Shown: positions 5,359 through 56,308 of the stretch, one piece after another
How the letters are laid out: the number at the start of each line of letters is the position of its first letter
Position numbering within the stretch: position 1 is the first letter of the stretch
Assembly (NCBI GenBank): GCA_030835125.1
Contig: JAUQWM010000048.1
Coordinates: 1 to 62,711, forward strand
Length of the DNA: 62,711 bases
Direction of reading: 5' to 3'
Origin: Gemmatimonadaceae bacterium
Lineage (GTDB): Bacteria; Gemmatimonadota; Gemmatimonadetes; Gemmatimonadales; Gemmatimonadaceae
Translations under genes and position numbers: made by a program
Notes under the pieces: model-generated
What the model was told of the DNA's origin: nothing
The model's input: the letters and a program-made list of their open reading frames with translations, nothing else
The model's database searches: none

Positions 5359-5368
5359 GGGTCAGAGG

Positions 5369-5932
<564 letters not shown>

Positions 5933-5995: not shown

Positions 5996-7027
5996 CTAAG
6001 GCACGGACAGCCGCCTGGCGAGCCAGGCTGCGCTGGTCGCGGAGTGGCGACGCCAGTACTCCCAGGTGTGGGCCCCGGGGTGCTCCCTGTATTCAAAAGG
6101 GACCCCGAGACGCCCGAGTGCGTCACGGAACGCCCGGTTGTGCGGCAGGAGGAAGTCCTCGGTACCGCAGTCGACCATCAGGGCCGGCATCGCCCCCGGT
6201 CGCCGCGATTTCAGGCGAGCGGCCATGGTTGCCGGATCGCGAGCGGCCCATCCAGTGCTGTCGGAACCGAACACGGGAGCTTCCAGCGCCCAAAGTGACG
6301 GAGCGTAGGACGCGCGCAGCGAGTCCAGGTCGAAGCGACCGACCGGCACGGGCAGTCGTCCGCCACCGAGCGCGGGGGCGAGCATTCCCGAATGACTCGC
6401 GGCCGCCGAGAACACGTCGGGATATGCGAGCGCGAGCGTGATGGCCCCGTATCCGCCCATCGAAAGCCCGGCGATCCCACGATGGCGCGCATCGGCGCGG
6501 GAGCGGTATCGCCCGTCGATAAACGCGACGAGGTCCCTCGCGATGTACTCATCGTAGTGCGGCCATGGCACGCAATAGCGGTCGGAGGGCTCGGCATTCG
6601 CGGGTCGATTTCGCCGGCAGCCGGCATAGTCGCCGAGGAAGTTCCAGGTGGTGTAGAACCCGTCGTCACCGTCGGGCATGACCACGATCATCTCGGGGCT
6701 GCCGGCGGCGGCGAGTGAATCGAGCGTGGTTGCCAACCGGCCGATGTTCAGCCAGTTGGTCTCGTCACCGAAGGCGCCGTGCAGGTAGTAGGCGACGGGG
6801 TATCGACGGTCCGCTTCCGCTGCGTACGACGGAGGCAGCCAGACCATTGCGCGTTTGTGGGTGCCGAGGGACTGGGACCAGAAGGTCGTTTCCTCAACGG
6901 CGAGGCTGCGTGCTGATTGCTGCCTGCTGCTGCTGGAACTGCGGGCTGGGGCTGGATGCTGGGGCTGGGGCTGGGGCTGGGGCTGGATCCACCCTGGCGT
7001 AATCAGGAGGGCGAACCAGAGCGCCAT
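5996..7027 (-). CDS. Exported esterase of the alpha/beta-hydrolase fold (putative esterase D family)
   Basis: A 343-residue serine esterase. A signal peptide (residues 1-13) is followed by a low-complexity stretch of alternating Gln-Pro (15-23) and poly-Ser (about 29-33), then the PF00756-like domain. The nucleophile is in GLSMGG, the acid in DCGTEDF and the base in HPGAHTWEYW; YYLHGAFGD forms the oxyanion region. Members hydrolyse acyl esters such as acetylxylan, enterobactin or mycolyl esters; this substrate is unknown. The low-complexity linker is encoded by the 6-bp and 7-bp repeat words also found between genes. The reading frame stays open to 7090, overlapping the next gene and other repeats, so I chose the Met preceding the hydrophobic segment. 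Confidence 0.85.
   Translation of the reverse strand: MALWFALLITPGWIQPQPQPQPQHPAPARSSSSSRQQSARSLAVEETTFWSQSLGTHKRAMVWLPPSYAAEADRRYPVAYYLHGAFGDETNWLNIGRLATTLDSLAAAGSPEMIVVMPDGDDGFYTTWNFLGDYAGCRRNRPANAEPSDRYCVPWPHYDEYIARDLVAFIDGRYRSRADARHRGIAGLSMGGYGAITLALAYPDVFSAAASHSGMLAPALGGGRLPVPVGRFDLDSLRASYAPSLWALEAPVFGSDSTGWAARDPATMAARLKSRRPGAMPALMVDCGTEDFLLPHNRAFRDALGRLGVPFEYREHPGAHTWEYWRRHSATSAAWLARRLSVP
6904..6987. repeat. TGCTGAT-type heptamers and CTGGGG hexamers inside a coding region
   Basis: Words TGCTGAT, TGCTGCC and TGCTGCT run from 6911 to 6931, and four exact CTGGGG units from 6959 to 6982. They lie inside the esterase gene just after the signal peptide and encode its Ser-rich and Gln-Pro linker. 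The same words occur between genes at 52301-52324 and 54702-54837. Confidence 0.9.
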
Positions 7028-7054
7028 CCTCGCCGGGTTACCATGTCCCGTCTT

Positions 7055-7075
7055 CCATCTCCCATCTCCCATCTC
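7055..7075. repeat. Three tandem CCATCTC words
   Basis: Exact CCATCTC copies at 7055, 7062 and 7069. The last overlaps the stop codon of the anchored RidA gene. Two related ATCTCC-type words lie at 58574-58587, also between genes. Confidence 0.85.
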
Positions 7076-15964: not shown

Positions 15965-15974
15965 GGAAGAACCA

Positions 15975-16002
15975 GTTGAGAGTTGAGAGTTGAGAGTTGA
16001 GA
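15975..16002. repeat. Four tandem GTTGAGA words
   Basis: Exact GTTGAGA copies at 15975, 15982, 15989 and 15996 between pruA (ends 15964) and the PhzF gene (starts 16032). The same word, inverted, makes up 5425-5452 and the 1-45 array. Confidence 0.95.
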
Positions 16003-16031
16003 GAGCTCGCCACCGTCGACTCCCGACCTCC

Positions 16032-21330: not shown

Positions 21331-22266
21331 ATGCGTCCCTCCTTCCTGCTCACCGCGGTCTCGCTCAGCCTCGTTGCCTGCAGCCGCGGAGGCGAGGCGC
21401 CGGCGGCCGACTCCAGCTCCCTGTTGCCGCTGACGGCCTCCCTGGCCACCGAGACCGGCGGAATGAAGTCGCCCGAATCCGCGCGGTACGACGCGGAGCT
21501 CGACGTGTTCTACGTGTCGAACATCGACGGCAATCCATCGGCCCGGGATGGCAACGGGTTCATCGCCGTCGTGCCGGCGGAATCGCTCGGCATCATGCGG
21601 GTGCTCGTGGCCGGGGGAAAGGGTGGCGCAACGCTCAACGCGCCCAAGGGACTCGCCCTCAGCGGCGACACGCTCTGGGTCACCGATATCGACGCGGTAC
21701 GCGGCTTCAATCGTCGCACCGGGGCGCCGCTCGCGACCATCGACCTGTCGGCGCAGGGCGCCACGTTCCTCAACGATGTCGCCGTCGGGCCGAACGGCGC
21801 CCTCTATGTCACCGACAGCGGGATTCGAATCGAGGCCGACGGCTCGACAACGCAGCCCGGGCCGGCGCGGATCTTCAAGGTCGCCCAGGGCGCCGCCACC
21901 GAGCTGGCTCGCGGCGAGGCGCTGCATAACGTGAACGGCCTGACGTGGCAGGACACCACCGGGGTCTGGCTCCTGGCGTCCTCGTCGAATGACGTGATGA
22001 CCTGGTCCGAGGGCGACTCGCTCCCGAAAGCCCTGGCGACCGGACCGGGGGGTTATGATGGCATCGAGGCCTTGAGCGACGGCCGGGTCTTGGTGTCCAG
22101 CTGGGCCGACAGCGCCGTGCACCTCATCACGAATGGCGCGATGACGACGCTCATCCCCAACGTCAGCGCCCCGGCCGATATCGGCTACGACTTGAAGCGG
22201 GGAGTCATCGCCGTGCCGCGGTTACAGGACGGCAAGGTCGGGTTCTACCAGCTGAAAGCGGGTTGA
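21331..22266 (+). CDS. Lipoprotein with SMP-30/NHL-type beta-propeller
   Basis: A 311-residue lipoprotein (lipobox SLVAC near residue 17). The mature part is built of repeated propeller blades (LNAPKGLALSGDTLWVTD, FLNDVAVGPNGALYVTD, NVNGLTW) like gluconolactonase/SMP-30 or NHL proteins. The paired Asn and Asp residues expected for a metal site of SMP-30 are partly present, so an enzymatic role such as lactone hydrolysis is possible but not shown. The stop TGA is followed directly by a heptamer-repeat hairpin that lies between it and the converging Tat-protein gene. Confidence 0.82.
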   Translation: MRPSFLLTAVSLSLVACSRGGEAPAADSSSLLPLTASLATETGGMKSPESARYDAELDVFYVSNIDGNPSARDGNGFIAVVPAESLGIMRVLVAGGKGGATLNAPKGLALSGDTLWVTDIDAVRGFNRRTGAPLATIDLSAQGATFLNDVAVGPNGALYVTDSGIRIEADGSTTQPGPARIFKVAQGAATELARGEALHNVNGLTWQDTTGVWLLASSSNDVMTWSEGDSLPKALATGPGGYDGIEALSDGRVLVSSWADSAVHLITNGAMTTLIPNVSAPADIGYDLKRGVIAVPRLQDGKVGFYQLKAG

Positions 22267-22414
22267 TTGCAGAGTGCAGATTGCAGATTGCTGATTGATG
22301 ATTTGGAGTCGCCCCACTCTGCACTCTGCCGGCCAAGTCCAGATGCGGGCTGATGATGATTTGGAATTCGCCCAATCTGCACTCTGCGATCTGCAATCTG
22401 CACTCTGCAATTGT
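22265..22414. repeat. Heptamer array folding as a hairpin between convergent genes
   Basis: Words CAGAGTG, CAGATTG, CAGATTG, CTGATTG at 22270-22297 face CACTCTG, CGATCTG, CAATCTG, CACTCTG at 22380-22407; read as a stem, 25 of 28 positions pair. Between them lies a direct repeat, 22297-22328 versus 22355-22386 (27 of 32 identical), each copy ending in the same words. The array fills the gap between two convergent genes and may act as a bidirectional terminator. Confidence 0.9.
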
Positions 22415-51139: not shown

Positions 51140-52265
51140 CGCGATGGCCCACGGGCGTCCCCTCCGCATCGTGCAGGTCTCGCCGTACAGCTGGGACGTC
51201 CCTGGCGGCGTCCAGGTGCACGTGCGCGAACTGGCGGCGCACCTCCGCCGCCGCGGCCACGCGGTGCAGGTGCTGGCCCCCGGGCGCCGGCGCGGCCGCC
51301 GCGACGACGCCTGGATCGTCGGGCGCGCGGTCCCGGTGCGAGGCAACGGGTCGGTCGCCCGCATCAGCTTCGGTCCGCAGGTCGCCCGCGCGGTCTCGCG
51401 CGCGCTGCGCGACGCGAACCCGGACATCATCCACGTCCACGAGCCGCTGGTCCCGAGCGTGTCGATGCACGCCGTCCTGGCAGCGACGGTGCCGGTCATC
51501 GGGACGTTCCACTCGAACGTCCCCCGGGAGCGGGTGGGCAGCCTGTGGTTCCGGCTCGCGGTGCCGATGATCCGGCCGGTGTGGAACCGGCTCGCCGGGC
51601 GCATCGCGGTCTCCGAGGCGGCCCGCCACAGCGTGACGTCGCGCATGGGCGACGCGGGGATGGCGATCGTGCCTAACGGCGTGGACGTGGAACGGTTCGC
51701 GTCCGCCGTCCCGGCCACGGTGCCCCCCGGACGCCACCTCCTCTTCGTCGGCCGACTCGAGGAGCGGAAGGGATTCCCGGTGGCGGTGCAGGCCTTCGCC
51801 CGGATGGCCGGACAGAACCCGGACCTGCGGCTGCTGGTGATCGGCGACGGGAGCGAGCGGGACGCCATCGACCAGCTCGAACCCGCCGTCCGCGCGCGCG
51901 TCGACATGCTCGGTCGCGTCGACGACACCCGGCTGTCGGCCTACCTCAAGGCGGCGACGGTCTACCTCGGCCCGGCCACCGGCGGCGAGAGTTTCGGCAT
52001 CGTCCTGGCGGAGGCGATGGCCGCCGGGCTCCCGATCGTGGCCAGCGACATTCCCGGCTATCGCGACGTGGCGCGCAACGGCGTCGAGGCGGTGCTGGTC
52101 CAGCCCGGGAGCCCCGCCGCGCTGGCCGACGGCGTGCAGCGCGTGCTCGACGATCCGTCGCTGGCGCGATCCCTGGGGGCCAGAGGCTCCCTGCGCGCCC
52201 GGGACTTCGACTGGGAGTCGATCACGGACCGGATCCTGGAGGAGTACGCGAAAGCCCTGCCCTGA
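51126..52265 (+). CDS. GT4 glycosyltransferase, PimA-like
   Basis: A 379-residue retaining glycosyltransferase, GT-B fold. The N-terminus VSPYSWDVPGGVQVHVREL closely follows the mycobacterial phosphatidylinositol mannosyltransferase PimA pattern (CPYSFDVPGGVQ). The donor site is LFVGRLEERKG, and GESFGIVLAEAMAAGLPIVA carries the E-x7-E motif. Sugar and acceptor are inferred: a mannosyl or hexosyl transfer to a lipid. Start 51126 overlaps the MFS gene by 14 nt; 51144 is an alternative. A CCCCAG array lies between it and the converging second glycosyltransferase. Confidence 0.88.
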   Translation: MPAPDAMAHGRPLRIVQVSPYSWDVPGGVQVHVRELAAHLRRRGHAVQVLAPGRRRGRRDDAWIVGRAVPVRGNGSVARISFGPQVARAVSRALRDANPDIIHVHEPLVPSVSMHAVLAATVPVIGTFHSNVPRERVGSLWFRLAVPMIRPVWNRLAGRIAVSEAARHSVTSRMGDAGMAIVPNGVDVERFASAVPATVPPGRHLLFVGRLEERKGFPVAVQAFARMAGQNPDLRLLVIGDGSERDAIDQLEPAVRARVDMLGRVDDTRLSAYLKAATVYLGPATGGESFGIVLAEAMAAGLPIVASDIPGYRDVARNGVEAVLVQPGSPAALADGVQRVLDDPSLARSLGARGSLRARDFDWESITDRILEEYAKALP

Positions 52266-52290
52266 GGTGCCGAGGCTCGTGCCCCAGCAG

Positions 52291-52335
52291 CCAGCTCCAG
52301 CCCCAGCCCCAGCCCCAGCCCCAGCCGCATGCGGC
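52291..52335. repeat. CCCCAG hexamer array and palindrome between convergent genes
   Basis: Four exact CCCCAG units (52301-52324) follow a CAGCTC-type start and abut the 12-bp palindrome GCCGCATGCGGC (52324-52335). Between the two converging glycosyltransferase genes. The same CCCCAG word, inverted, encodes the linker of the esterase at 6959-6982. Confidence 0.9.
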
Positions 52336-52376
52336 AGCCGCAGCCACCAGCAATCAGTACGCAGCTCCCTCCCTGC

Positions 52377-53495
52377 TCACCTGAGAATGTCGCGCAGCAG
52401 CGCGTCGAGCCTCGCCGCCATGACCTCCCACGTCCACTCGGCATGGACCCACTCCGCGCCCGCCCTGCCCATCGCCTCGGCCCGGGCCCGGTCGGTGAGC
52501 AGCGACACGATCGCCTCCGCCAGCGGCTCCGGGCGGTCGGGATCCACGACCAGGCCCGTCTCGCCGTGCCTCACGGCCTCCGGCGCCCCGCCGGAGTCGC
52601 CCGCGATCACCGGCCGCCCCACCGACGCCCCCTGGAGGAACACCGCGCCTAACGCCTCGACGTCGAACCCGAACCAGCGCAGCCGGCACGGCATCGCGAA
52701 CACGTCGCCGGCGCGGAAGTAGGCCGGCAGCTCCGCGTACGGGGCCGCGCCCGCGAAGACGATGCGGTCCGCCATCCCGCTCGCCGCCGCCAGCTTCCGG
52801 AGCGCCGCCTCGTACGGCCCGGTGCCCACGATCAGCAACCGCACGTCGGGCACCGATCGCGCCACCTGCGGCAGCGCCCGGATCAGCAGGTCCTGCCCCT
52901 TCCGCGCCACCAGCCGCGACACGCAGCAGACGACCGGCGCGCTGCCTAACGCATGCCGCTCGCGCACCACCGCGTCCGACACGTCCGGCCGGAACGCCTC
53001 GGTGTCGATCCCCGAGGGCAGCAGCGCCATCCGCCCCTCCCAGCCGAACGCCGGTCCCAGCGCGTCCTGCGCCCACTTCGACACCGCGGTCAGCATCGAC
53101 GCGTCGCGGCCGATGTGGCGCAGCAGCCCCGGCACCAGCGTCCCCGTCAGCTCCAGTCCGTGGGTGAAGCCCAGGTAGGGGATCCCCAGCTTCTTCCGGA
53201 TGCCGGGTCCCATGTGCCCGAGCGGCCAGGTCGCCCCGAACACCACGATGTCGGGATGGAGCCGCCGCAACTCGGCGTGCAGCCGCCGGCGCACCGCCGG
53301 CGTCGGCAGCATCATCTCGGTGTCGAGGCGGATCACCTCGTGCGGATAGGTGCGATCGAACTCCTCCCAGCCCGCGTAGCGCGACGAGAAGACGGTCACG
53401 GTCCCGGGCGGGAACCGCCGCATCATCTGGTCGACGTAGTAGTTGATGCCGCCGATGCGGGGCGGGAAGTCGTTCGTGACGACGAAGACGTGCAC
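52377..53495 (-). CDS. GT4 glycosyltransferase, PimB'-like
   Basis: A 372-residue GT-B glycosyltransferase. VTNDFPPRIGGINYYVDQM at the start, CVSRLVARKGQDLLIRALP, and DVFAMPCRLRWFGFDVEALG with VIAGDSGGAPEAVRHGETG strongly resemble mycobacterial PimB', the second mannosyltransferase of phosphatidylinositol mannoside synthesis. Function here is inference by family resemblance. GTG start; no clear ribosome site. It converges on the PimA-like gene. TTA codons occur twice, both in CGTTAGG words. Confidence 0.88.
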   Translation of the reverse strand: MHVFVVTNDFPPRIGGINYYVDQMMRRFPPGTVTVFSSRYAGWEEFDRTYPHEVIRLDTEMMLPTPAVRRRLHAELRRLHPDIVVFGATWPLGHMGPGIRKKLGIPYLGFTHGLELTGTLVPGLLRHIGRDASMLTAVSKWAQDALGPAFGWEGRMALLPSGIDTEAFRPDVSDAVVRERHALGSAPVVCCVSRLVARKGQDLLIRALPQVARSVPDVRLLIVGTGPYEAALRKLAAASGMADRIVFAGAAPYAELPAYFRAGDVFAMPCRLRWFGFDVEALGAVFLQGASVGRPVIAGDSGGAPEAVRHGETGLVVDPDRPEPLAEAIVSLLTDRARAEAMGRAGAEWVHAEWTWEVMAARLDALLRDILR

Positions 53496-53583: not shown

Positions 53584-54699
53584 GTGACGGATTATCGTCG
53601 GTCCCGCGCGCCCTCGCTCCCCTTTCGCCACCCCGTGATCCTCCTTGCCGGCGTCTTCGCCTCCGCGCTCGTGTTCCAGGCCACGCCGGTGGAGCCGGAT
53701 ACCGCCACCGGCACGCGGCTGCGGGTCTTTCCCGCCGGCAGCTATTCCGGGGTGACCGGGCTCCAGTATGGCGCGGCCATGCTGGTGGGGTTCCGCGTCG
53801 GTCCGGATTCCAGCACGCGCCCGTCCTCGTTCACGGCGTACGGCGCCCTGACGGCGAAGGGCCACGCGAAGGGCTACCTGCAGGTGGACCGGTGGTCGGC
53901 GGGCAACGAGCGGCACGCGCGGGCACGCCTCGAGCACATCTCGTATCCGTTGCCCTATTTCGGCATCGGCCCGCGCACCCCGGCGAGCGCCGAGGAGTGG
54001 TACAGCAGCGGCGTCACGACGATTCACCTGTTCGTCCAGCAGGCAATCCCGAAGCCGCGCTACTGGCACTGGGGCGTGCGGTCCGTCTGGACCCGCCTGC
54101 ACGACACCGAGCCCGGCGGCGCGATCGATCGGGGCGACGCGCCCGGTGCCGGGGGGACGCACACGACCGCCCTGGAGATTGGCCCGGTCATCGACTCGCG
54201 CGATGACATGGCGGCGCCAGGGACCGGTGTGTTCACCCGCGCCATCCTCTCCGGCGGCGCCTCGACCGGCGACGAGACCTTCGGCCGCCTCGCGATCGAC
54301 GCCCGTCGTTATGCACCCGTGGGCGCCGGTCACGTGGTCGCGCTGCAACTCCAGTACGATGGCCTTTTCGGGAGCCTGCCGTTCGACCAGTTGCCGATGA
54401 TCGGCGCGGACACCGCGATGCGGGGATATCCGCGAGGCCGCTTCCGGGACCGGCAGGCGATGACCGCGCAGGTCGAGCTGCGTACGGCCTACTGGCGCCG
54501 CATCGGCGCCGTGGCCTTTGCCGGCGCCGGCACGGTCGCGCCGGTGTTCGGGCGCCTCGCGTCAGGCACCTGGTATCCCACGGCCGGCATCGGCCTCCGC
54601 GCCCTGCTGTCGCCCCGGCAACGCGCCATCGGCCGCCTGGACCTCGCGTTCGGCCGGGGATCGTGGGGCGTGAACGTGGGGCTGGGAGAGGCGTTTTGA
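53584..54699 (+). CDS. Omp85-like outer-membrane beta-barrel protein without POTRA domains
   Basis: A 371-residue exported protein. After a signal peptide (hydrophobic stretch about residues 18-32) almost the whole chain is amphipathic strand sequence and ends in Phe (VGLGEAF). IGADTAMRGYPRGRFRDRQ carries the RGY loop-6 motif of the BamA/TamA/surface-antigen superfamily. There are no POTRA repeats, so it is a barrel-only member such as a patatin-less or lipid-associated homologue. GTG 53584 gives a basic n-region; GTG 53635 is an alternative. A repeat hairpin follows the stop. Confidence 0.8.
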   Translation: MTDYRRSRAPSLPFRHPVILLAGVFASALVFQATPVEPDTATGTRLRVFPAGSYSGVTGLQYGAAMLVGFRVGPDSSTRPSSFTAYGALTAKGHAKGYLQVDRWSAGNERHARARLEHISYPLPYFGIGPRTPASAEEWYSSGVTTIHLFVQQAIPKPRYWHWGVRSVWTRLHDTEPGGAIDRGDAPGAGGTHTTALEIGPVIDSRDDMAAPGTGVFTRAILSGGASTGDETFGRLAIDARRYAPVGAGHVVALQLQYDGLFGSLPFDQLPMIGADTAMRGYPRGRFRDRQAMTAQVELRTAYWRRIGAVAFAGAGTVAPVFGRLASGTWYPTAGIGLRALLSPRQRAIGRLDLAFGRGSWGVNVGLGEAF

Positions 54700-54701
54700 C
54701 A

Positions 54702-54837
54702 TGCTGCGTGCTGATTGCTGCGTGCTGATTGCTTCTTACTGCTGCTGGGTCTGCGGGCTGGGGCTGGCAACCAGCCCCGGCAACCTGCGGCAGCCCCCAG
54801 CAGGCAGCAATCAGAACGCAGCAACCAGCACGCAGTT
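54702..54837. repeat. Heptamer hairpin, TGCTGCG/TGCTGAT type
   Basis: Left arm (54702-54736): TGCTGCG, TGCTGAT, TGCTGCG, TGCTGAT, TGCTTCT. Right arm (54803-54837): GGCAGCA, ATCAGAA, CGCAGCA, ACCAGCA, CGCAGTT. Folded, word pairs with word and 29 of 35 positions match. The tip is a perfect GGGGCTGG-CAA-CCAGCCCC hairpin (54760-54778). It fills the gap between two convergent genes and looks like a bidirectional terminator or cruciform. Confidence 0.93.
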
Positions 54838-54844
54838 CCAACCC

Positions 54845-56308
54845 CTATCTGGCCAGGCTCCAATTGAGGTATTGCGGCTCCCCGGTCACCTCACGCTCGA
54901 TGAACGGCTCGAGCCACTCCGGGACCTCCACCTTCGTGTCTGCTGACGGCAACTCGATCTCGGCAAGCACCAGCGGCCGGTCGGTGAACTCGTCGACCTC
55001 CCAGGTCAGCTCGCCCGTCGGCACACGATGGCGCCGCTTGGTCAGGCGCTTCCCCTTCGTCAGCGGCCACATCGCCTGGAAGACCTCCGGCGTGGTCTCC
55101 TCCTCGATCTCCGTCCTGACCAGCCCCGAGCCCACCTTCACGGTCCGGTAGTGCGTCCGCTTGCGGCCCACCTCGACCAGCCGCAGGCGCTCCACCAGGC
55201 GATCGCCAGGCAGGTAGCCCTGCTCCATTCGCTCCACCATCGACTCCGGCATGGACGCCGGCAGTCCCTTGAGCAGGAACTTGCGCTCGATCTCGAGCGC
55301 CGCGGGCGCCCGTTCGTCGAGCTGATCGGCCAGCCGGACGATGTCGTCGTGAAAGGCGCGCGCCGTGCCGTCGACCCACCCGGCCTGGTAGCGGGCGAAC
55401 GCCGATTCCGCGCGCTCGTGCGCCAGCCGCGCCAGCGCCACCAGCCCGGCGCGCGGCGGCCCGCGGCGGCGACGTTTCGGCGCCTCCTCCGTCCCGGCCG
55501 CGGTGAGGGCATGCGCCATGCGCCGCCCCTCCTCCATCGCCAGGTCGGCGACGACGTGGCGGAGCACCAGCAGCCACACGTGCGCATCATGGACGTCGCC
55601 TAACGCGTCCTGCAGCCCGCGCAGGCGGGCCAGCAGCTCGGACCCGCCGGGCAGGTGCGGCGCCACGGGTTCCAGGACGTATCGCAGCCGCTTACCCGTG
55701 ATCCGCGCCCGGTGCACCGCCTCGATGTCCTCCACCGAGGAGACGCGCTTCAGCCGCCGCCGGAGGTCGTTCGCGTGATCCCGCAGCAGCGACGCCACCA
55801 CCACGGCGAAGACGGGCTCACGCACCCCGGCGTGCACGTGGGCGGCCACCCGGTACGTCGAGAGGCGCTCCTCCAGGCGAGCCACCGTCCGGTCGAAGTC
55901 CTTCGCCAGTCGCCCTTCCAGTTCCGACTCCGCCTCCCGCTCCTGCCGCGCGAACCGCTCGGTCAGCCAGCGCACCGCGCCCCGCTCGCGCGGCGGTAGT
56001 TGCGGGCCGGCCGTGGCCAGCCACCCCAGGAACACCTCGGCGTCGCGCCCGGCGTTCGATTCGCGCGCCATCCGGCCCAGCCGCCGCACGCACGGTGCGG
56101 GGACGCTGCCCTCGAGCACGGAACCGAAGGCACGCAGCCAGCTCCGCAGGCGCCGCAGTGCCACGCGGAAGTCATGCAGCGTCTCGCTCTCGCGCTCTTC
56201 CGCCAGGCGGCGCCGCTCGGTCACCAGGTCTTCCAGCAGGCCGAGCGCGACCAGCCGGGCGGAACGCTGCGCCGTGTCGTCGAGCAGCGGCGCTTCGAAG
56301 GAGGCCAT
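54845..56308 (-). CDS. CHAD-CYTH fusion protein
   Basis: A 487-residue cytoplasmic protein. A helical CHAD domain (about 15-300, His- and Arg-rich: LHDFRVALRRLRSWLRAF, VHRARITGKRLRYVLE) binds polyphosphate in known cases. A CYTH triphosphatase-type domain starts at EIERKFLL (residue 339) and includes the tunnel residues KRLTKRRHR. The order CHAD then CYTH is the reverse of the E. coli YgiF type. The SixA gene lies 6 nt upstream on the same strand, so a phosphate or polyphosphate role is likely. Confidence 0.93.
   Translation of the reverse strand: MASFEAPLLDDTAQRSARLVALGLLEDLVTERRRLAEERESETLHDFRVALRRLRSWLRAFGSVLEGSVPAPCVRRLGRMARESNAGRDAEVFLGWLATAGPQLPPRERGAVRWLTERFARQEREAESELEGRLAKDFDRTVARLEERLSTYRVAAHVHAGVREPVFAVVVASLLRDHANDLRRRLKRVSSVEDIEAVHRARITGKRLRYVLEPVAPHLPGGSELLARLRGLQDALGDVHDAHVWLLVLRHVVADLAMEEGRRMAHALTAAGTEEAPKRRRRGPPRAGLVALARLAHERAESAFARYQAGWVDGTARAFHDDIVRLADQLDERAPAALEIERKFLLKGLPASMPESMVERMEQGYLPGDRLVERLRLVEVGRKRTHYRTVKVGSGLVRTEIEEETTPEVFQAMWPLTKGKRLTKRRHRVPTGELTWEVDEFTDRPLVLAEIELPSADTKVEVPEWLEPFIEREVTGEPQYLNWSLAR

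What the first reader, a model, noticed from the sequence alone, without database searches (positions are those of the whole stretch)
54702..54837. Heptamer words pair one for one in a 35-bp hairpin
The five words of the left arm and five of the right arm are complementary in order, 29 of 35 positions matching, with a perfect 8-bp stem and CAA loop inside (54760-54778). This shows selection or mechanism for inverted arrangement, not only tandem slippage. It sits between two convergent genes.
Basis: seen in the sequence. Interest (0 to 1): 0.72.

Follow-up and report, generated by a model that had tools for sequence, protein, structure and literature searches.

The report
One copy of a dispersed hairpin repeat
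The strange hairpin between two genes is one of about 25-30 scattered copies of a short inverted-repeat element in this bacterium's genome; its two halves match because both descend from one arm sequence, and I found no sign that they are kept in step pair by pair.

Summary
In detail: 29/35 paired positions and an 8-bp CAA stem-loop at 54760-54778. The whole 134-bp gap between two convergent stop codons folds as one hairpin (-98 kcal/mol, z -9).

It is not unique. It is one copy of a dispersed inverted-repeat element with sharp ends GCTGCGTGCTGATTGCTG...CAGCAATCAGCACGCAGC. The genome holds about 25-30 two-armed copies plus half copies. A diverged set occurs in the one congener; other genera give few or weak matches.

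The genome also carries hundreds of intergenic heptamer arrays of about ten word families. They obey a strict polarity: 'left' words precede 'right' words in a gap (49:1 here, 29:0 in other phyla), and the two arms share a family in 35/49 gaps. So the inverted arrangement is real and not slippage alone.

The stronger claim fails. In 26 copies an element's two arms are no more alike than arms drawn from different copies, and no pair shows a compensatory double change. In four other genera the flanking genes are adjacent, without the hairpin. Congener gaps are empty or filled by another family.

Best explanation: a non-conserved, amplifying hairpin repeat settling at gene 3' ends. A bidirectional terminator role is possible but unproven. 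Heptamer inverted pairs with this polarity are already published for Xanthomonas.

The parts
54703..54836 (.). Whole hairpin element (one copy of the dispersed GCTGCGTGCTGATTGCTG...CAGCAATCAGCACGCAGC family)
   Evidence: Fold z -9.0; covariance model of the other copies hits 54717-54822 on both strands at 91.4 and 85.6 bits (this copy is itself a row of the model)
54703..54767 (+). Left arm, outer heptamer-like part then inner CTG/GGGCTGG part
   Evidence: Sequence and inverted-repeat search
54702..54729 (+). Two exact copies of the 14-nt unit TGCTGCGTGCTGAT in the left arm
   Evidence: the repeat finder D2 and Tandem Repeats Finder
54760..54778 (.). Inner perfect 8-bp stem with CAA loop
   Evidence: Sequence
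54772..54836 (-). Right arm (reads as a left arm on the - strand)
   Evidence: Sequence and inverted-repeat search
54809..54836 (-). The doubled 14-nt unit of the right arm (ACTGCGTGCTGGTT, GCTGCGTTCTGATT)
   Evidence: Sequence; doubling in both arms seen only in this copy of 26
53635..54699 (+). Flanking gene, Omp85-superfamily (PF01103) protein; its stop codon lies 2 nt before 54702
   Evidence: Pfam E 7.9e-9; predicted start
54845..56308 (-). Flanking gene, CHAD-domain protein (PF05235); stop codon at 54845
   Evidence: Pfam E 2.9e-33

Best explanation
The finding is one copy of a dispersed, non-coding inverted-repeat element of 85-215 bp, expanded in this genus, whose arms are built from degenerate GCTGNNT heptamers outside and GCTGG(G/T)-like units inside. 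It belongs to a wider class of oriented intergenic heptamer repeats in this genome. Elements spread as two-armed units, by a process I could not identify, settle flush with gene 3' ends, above all between convergent genes, then lose one arm, are replaced by another family, or change unit number by slippage (here a 14-nt unit doubled in both arms). Shown: dispersal, copy structure, polarity, 3'-end placement, turnover between species, and no detectable pair-by-pair covariation. Inferred: spreading as a unit, decay to half elements, and neutrality or mild usefulness as a two-way transcript barrier.
For: 56 both-strand model hits (about 28 elements) in this genome and 16 in the congener. Exact core 15-mer 32 forward/28 reverse here and at most 1 in any of 117 relatives. 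Sharp ends in 18 copies. Polarity 49 LR to 1 RL and family match 35/49; word-family polarity 92/101 against a null maximum of 73. Arrays within 5 nt of a predicted stop in 49.5% of clusters against 2.9% of random placements. Convergent enrichment. Arms unlinked within copies. Derived placement: a SixA-CHAD-glycosyltransferase order with a gap of about 20 nt or less in four genera is split here by the Omp85 gene and hairpin. Congener gaps empty at 22267-22413 and 5359-5434, and a different family at 15965-16031.
Against: No mobilising enzyme, target-site duplication or autonomous copy was found, so spread as a unit is an inference from repeat structure. The outer 19 nt of both arms are strongly conserved among copies, which could reflect function as well as recent spread. 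The 14-nt doubling is mirrored in both arms of this copy.
Confidence: 0.68

Rival explanations
1. A bidirectional transcription barrier kept by selection: a strong RNA hairpin that stops or trims both converging mRNAs. The gene insertion that made the two genes convergent created the need for it.
For: Hairpin spans both stop codons and is very stable in both transcripts; hairpins enriched 4.8-fold at convergent gaps with only 3 of 32 at divergent gaps; the CHAD and glycosyltransferase genes became separated by an opposing gene here.
Against: No T-run on either side (sequence); no compensatory changes; a convergent gap at 22267-22413 has a 147-bp hairpin here and 21 nt without one in the congener; half elements and mixed-word gaps are common.
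Confidence: 0.25
2. Fold-back template switching during replication copies one arm into the other, so words stay matched without selection on structure.
For: The 14-nt unit is doubled in both arms of this copy; some pure heptamer hairpins have identical arms including variants, e.g. C59:11441 and C7:24579.
Against: Across 26 copies own arms are not more alike than others; extra 14-nt units occur in one arm only in C22:78470 and C28:74026; for pure heptamer hairpins p = 0.19 with N = 15.
Confidence: 0.12
3. A REPIN or MITE mobilised in trans by a transposase.
For: Inverted doublets, abundant single arms, intergenic, lineage-specific expansion.
Against: No Y1 transposase (PF01797) anywhere in a 99%-complete genome; no obvious target duplications in 18 flanks; element-flanked spans hold ordinary genes.
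Confidence: 0.2
4. Chance pairing of two unrelated GC-rich tandem arrays.
For: The words are low-complexity CTG-rich.
Against: Shuffles and random windows; shared ends in many copies.
Confidence: 0.01

Closest known systems
Heptameric GGGAATC / GGGGA(C/T)T repeats of Xanthomonas and Nostoc (Rehm et al. 2015, PMC4692102)
   Same: 7-nt units, dispersed, intergenic, next to stop codons on the sense strand and upstream of starts on the antisense strand, close inverted pairs (70 and 75 in two Xanthomonas genomes), few shared sites between species. GGGAATC arrays also occur in this genome.
   Different: About ten word families share one polarity rule here; the finding's own words lack G-tracts and form a composite 14-nt/hexamer arm; hairpins are enriched between convergent genes.
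Seven-nucleotide repeat stems of the Nostoc trnL intron P6b loop (PMC4476775)
   Same: A stem built from heptamer words on both sides, unit gains of 7 or 14 nt on one or both sides, replacement of one word class by another.
   Different: That stem lies in one RNA gene; this is a dispersed intergenic element without a known host RNA.
REPINs (Bertels and Rainey 2011, PMC3116915)
   Same: Inverted doublets forming hairpins, single-unit remnants, intergenic dispersal (abstract).
   Different: No Y1/RAYT gene in this genome; arms are tandem words, not REP palindromes.
Intergenic TAACTGA repeats of Beggiatoaceae (MacGregor 2015, PMC4679880)
   Same: Heptamer arrays spread through intergenic DNA and across distant phyla.
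   Different: One word, direct repeats, mostly just upstream of start codons.

Membership tests
Oriented intergenic heptamer repeats (Xanthomonas/Nostoc kind) | Repeat period of 7 nt | tested here: met
   153 period-7 arrays against 0 of period 4, 5, 8 or 10 in 1.6 Mb. For the finding itself the outer arm has period 7/14 and the inner part does not.
Oriented intergenic heptamer repeats (Xanthomonas/Nostoc kind) | G-rich word on the sense strand after stops and on the antisense strand before starts; inverted pairs | tested here: met
   Gap-edge polarity 92/101; 49 LR to 1 RL
Oriented intergenic heptamer repeats (Xanthomonas/Nostoc kind) | G-tracts able to form G-quadruplexes | tested here: not met
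   By reading: GCTGCGT and GCTGATT words carry no GGG run; only the inner arm does
REPIN / REP-RAYT | Inverted doublet with single-copy remnants | tested here: met
   Two-armed and half copies
REPIN / REP-RAYT | Y1 (RAYT) transposase in the genome | tested here: not met
   PF01797: no match in own genome; control genomes ring
MITE | Terminal inverted repeats with target-site duplication | tested here: not met
   Sharp inverted ends but no obvious duplicated flank in 18 copies, by eye
MITE | Related autonomous transposon | tested here: inconclusive
   Three spans of 1.7-1.9 kb between element ends hold ordinary genes; not all contigs were read
Intrinsic (Rho-independent) terminator | G+C-rich stem followed by a T-run | tested here: not met
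   Stem present, but TCCAACC follows on + and CATGTCAAAACG on -
Intrinsic (Rho-independent) terminator | Stops transcription | not testable with these tools
   Needs RNA data
Known RNA family | Match to an Rfam model | tested here: not met
   No gathering-score match in the window

The most novel reading that the evidence does not exclude
An undescribed process, active in several bacterial phyla, writes or spreads heptamer words at gene boundaries in one fixed polarity, with paired arms usually drawn from one word family; this hairpin would be one product of it.
Probability: 0.25. Interest if true: 0.7.

Novelty: new member of a known kind. Interest (0 to 1): 0.4.

Why it matters
Oriented heptamer repeats have been described word by word (GGGAATC, TAACTGA, the cyanobacterial repeats). 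Here many word families in one genome obey the same gap-edge polarity, GCAGATT obeys it in other phyla too, and two congeners show the same gap empty, filled or refilled. That makes a testable system for asking what makes and orients these repeats, and it shows that a pretty word-by-word hairpin need not mean selection on pairing.

Tried and rejected
Rfam: no match. Y1/RAYT transposase: none. Autonomous transposon: the element-flanked spans at C2, C62 and C63 carry an AMP-ligase-like, a transporter-like and a UbiA-like gene (identified by eye), no transposase. An integron integrase exists at C46, but elements are dispersed rather than in cassettes, so attC was not pursued. The purine-content proxy for polarity was too crude: it misclassified the CGTGACT and TGCTGAT words and was replaced by word families. 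Three literature searches gave nothing or only off-topic papers. Gene calls come from my own hexamer caller, so start codons are approximate.

Full report
Observation. The hairpin is real and exact as described. 54702-54736 and 54803-54837 match at 29 of 35 positions, and GGGGCTGG-CAA-CCAGCCCC is at 54760-54778. The longer arms 54704-54741/54798-54835 pair at 87%. As RNA the region folds to -98 kcal/mol on the + strand (z -9.0) and -96 on the - strand (z -7.6), and no shuffle does as well. It fills the gap between the stop of a + strand Omp85-superfamily gene (54699) and the stop of a - strand CHAD-domain gene (54845).

What it is. A search for its core word in the whole 4.48-Mb genome gave 41 forward and 33 reverse matches, many as opposed pairs about 100 bp apart. 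Reading 1.6 Mb showed that these are copies of one element with sharp, inverted ends, GCTGCGTGCTGATTGCTG...CAGCAATCAGCACGCAGC, 85-215 bp long, plus many one-armed copies. A covariance model built on 11 copies finds 56 both-strand hits (about 28 elements) here and 16 in the only congener. Eight other family genomes of the 59 searched have matches, at most 56 bits against up to 115 bits here. The congener also shows dozens of partial DNA matches, while the exact core 15-mer occurs at most once in any of 117 relatives. So this is a genus-level expansion.

The wider class. The same genome has 153 period-7 arrays at score 16 or more in 1.6 Mb, against none of period 4, 5, 8 or 10, falling into about ten word families. 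In the first 0.86 Mb, half of the clusters lie within 5 nt of a predicted stop codon against 3% of random placements. Each family has a fixed orientation relative to the gap edge, 92 of 101 arrays, null mean 63 and maximum 73. Left-type words precede right-type words in 49 neighbouring pairs within a gap and follow in 1; the two sides share a family in 35 of 49 against about 13% expected. In loci from other phyla picked only for holding GCAGATT arrays, the count is 29 to 0, same family in 27. Inverted arrangement is therefore a rule of these repeats, which tandem slippage alone does not explain.

Is pairing itself kept? No sign of it. If words were selected to pair, the arms of one copy should resemble each other more than arms of different copies. 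In 21 and then 26 two-armed copies they do not (P 0.80-0.99, 0.25-0.97). Over the outer 28 pairs of 21 copies there are 134 non-pairs with own partners and 125 +/- 7.6 with permuted partners. None of 30 consensus pairs shows a double change that keeps the pair. The variable dinucleotide inside one heptamer agrees between arms in 3 copies against 4.7 expected. Pure heptamer hairpins give p = 0.19 with 15 pairs. The present copy pairs better than most because a 14-nt unit is doubled in both arms; two other copies have an extra 14-nt unit in one arm only. These tests use related copies without a tree and modest numbers, so weak coupling is not excluded.

Is the site conserved? In four other genera the CHAD gene is followed within about 20 nt by a glycosyltransferase gene (L078, L079, L081, L088), in three of them (L078, L079, L081) preceded by the SixA-like gene. 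In the window the Omp85 gene and the hairpin lie between the CHAD gene and the glycosyltransferase (52377-53495), so both are derived. Whether the hairpin came with the gene or later is unknown; the congener assembly lacks this region. Elsewhere in the window, against the congener: the GCAGAGT hairpin at 22265-22411 is absent (21-nt gap); the GAGTTGA array at 15974-16003 is matched by a complete element of the present family; the gap at 6902-7073 has the family in both; the array pair at 5360-5455 is absent. Turnover is fast, and one gap can hold different families in two species.

How it most likely works. I favour a spreading repeat that tolerates, and perhaps profits from, 3' ends of genes. 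Long hairpins are enriched between convergent genes, odds ratio 4.8, and rare between divergent ones. That fits a two-way transcript barrier but equally fits purging from promoters and coding sequence. There is no T-run, so a classical intrinsic terminator is not met. The means of spread is unknown: no Y1 transposase, no visible target duplications, no autonomous copy in the spans read.

Comparison. Rehm et al. 2015 described heptameric repeats with the same polarity and with inverted close pairs in Xanthomonas (PMC4692102). Nostoc trnL P6b stems are made of seven-nucleotide words with 14-nt gains on both sides and class replacement (PMC4476775). The finding is a new member of this kind, as a composite element. 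What goes beyond those papers is the multi-family polarity in one genome, the explicit no-covariation test and the empty or replaced sites.

Limits. Gene starts come from my own caller. 36% of the genome was read in full. The organism was not identified by name. Family membership of arrays used a word list drawn from the same genome, so the orientation labels are partly defined by the data; the other-phyla test and the LR/RL count are the cleaner tests.

Noticed in passing
L055:8349-16471 (G000 contig C8, about 88.3-96.5 kb): A radical-SAM gene, an imuB-like gene and a dnaE2-like error-prone polymerase gene carry about a dozen heptamer arrays inside their coding sequence, apparently in frame, giving peptides such as HESRVTSHE and IPDSRFPIP. 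The congener's dnaE2 (L310) has arrays with other words, one at the corresponding place.
   Followed up: partly
window 22265-22411: A second hairpin between convergent genes, built of GCAGAGT/GCAGATT words; absent from the same gap of the congener.
   Followed up: yes
window 6905-7017 and 52254-52365: One-armed or degenerate copies of the same element family, each with an inner GGGCTG-type hexamer array.
   Followed up: partly
L296:674-2388, L295:736-2636, L297:708-2448: Element ends flank single ordinary genes at 1.7-1.9 kb, with other heptamer arrays between element end and gene in at least two of them (L296, L297); possible nested insertions.
   Followed up: partly
G000 contig C46:24082-25011: A full-length integron integrase gene (TIGR02249, 388 bits); surroundings not examined for attC sites.
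   Followed up: no
L107-L224: GCAGATT heptamer arrays with the same polarity occur in Chloroflexota, Acidobacteriota, Armatimonadota, Planctomycetota and Bacteroidota genomes.
   Followed up: partly
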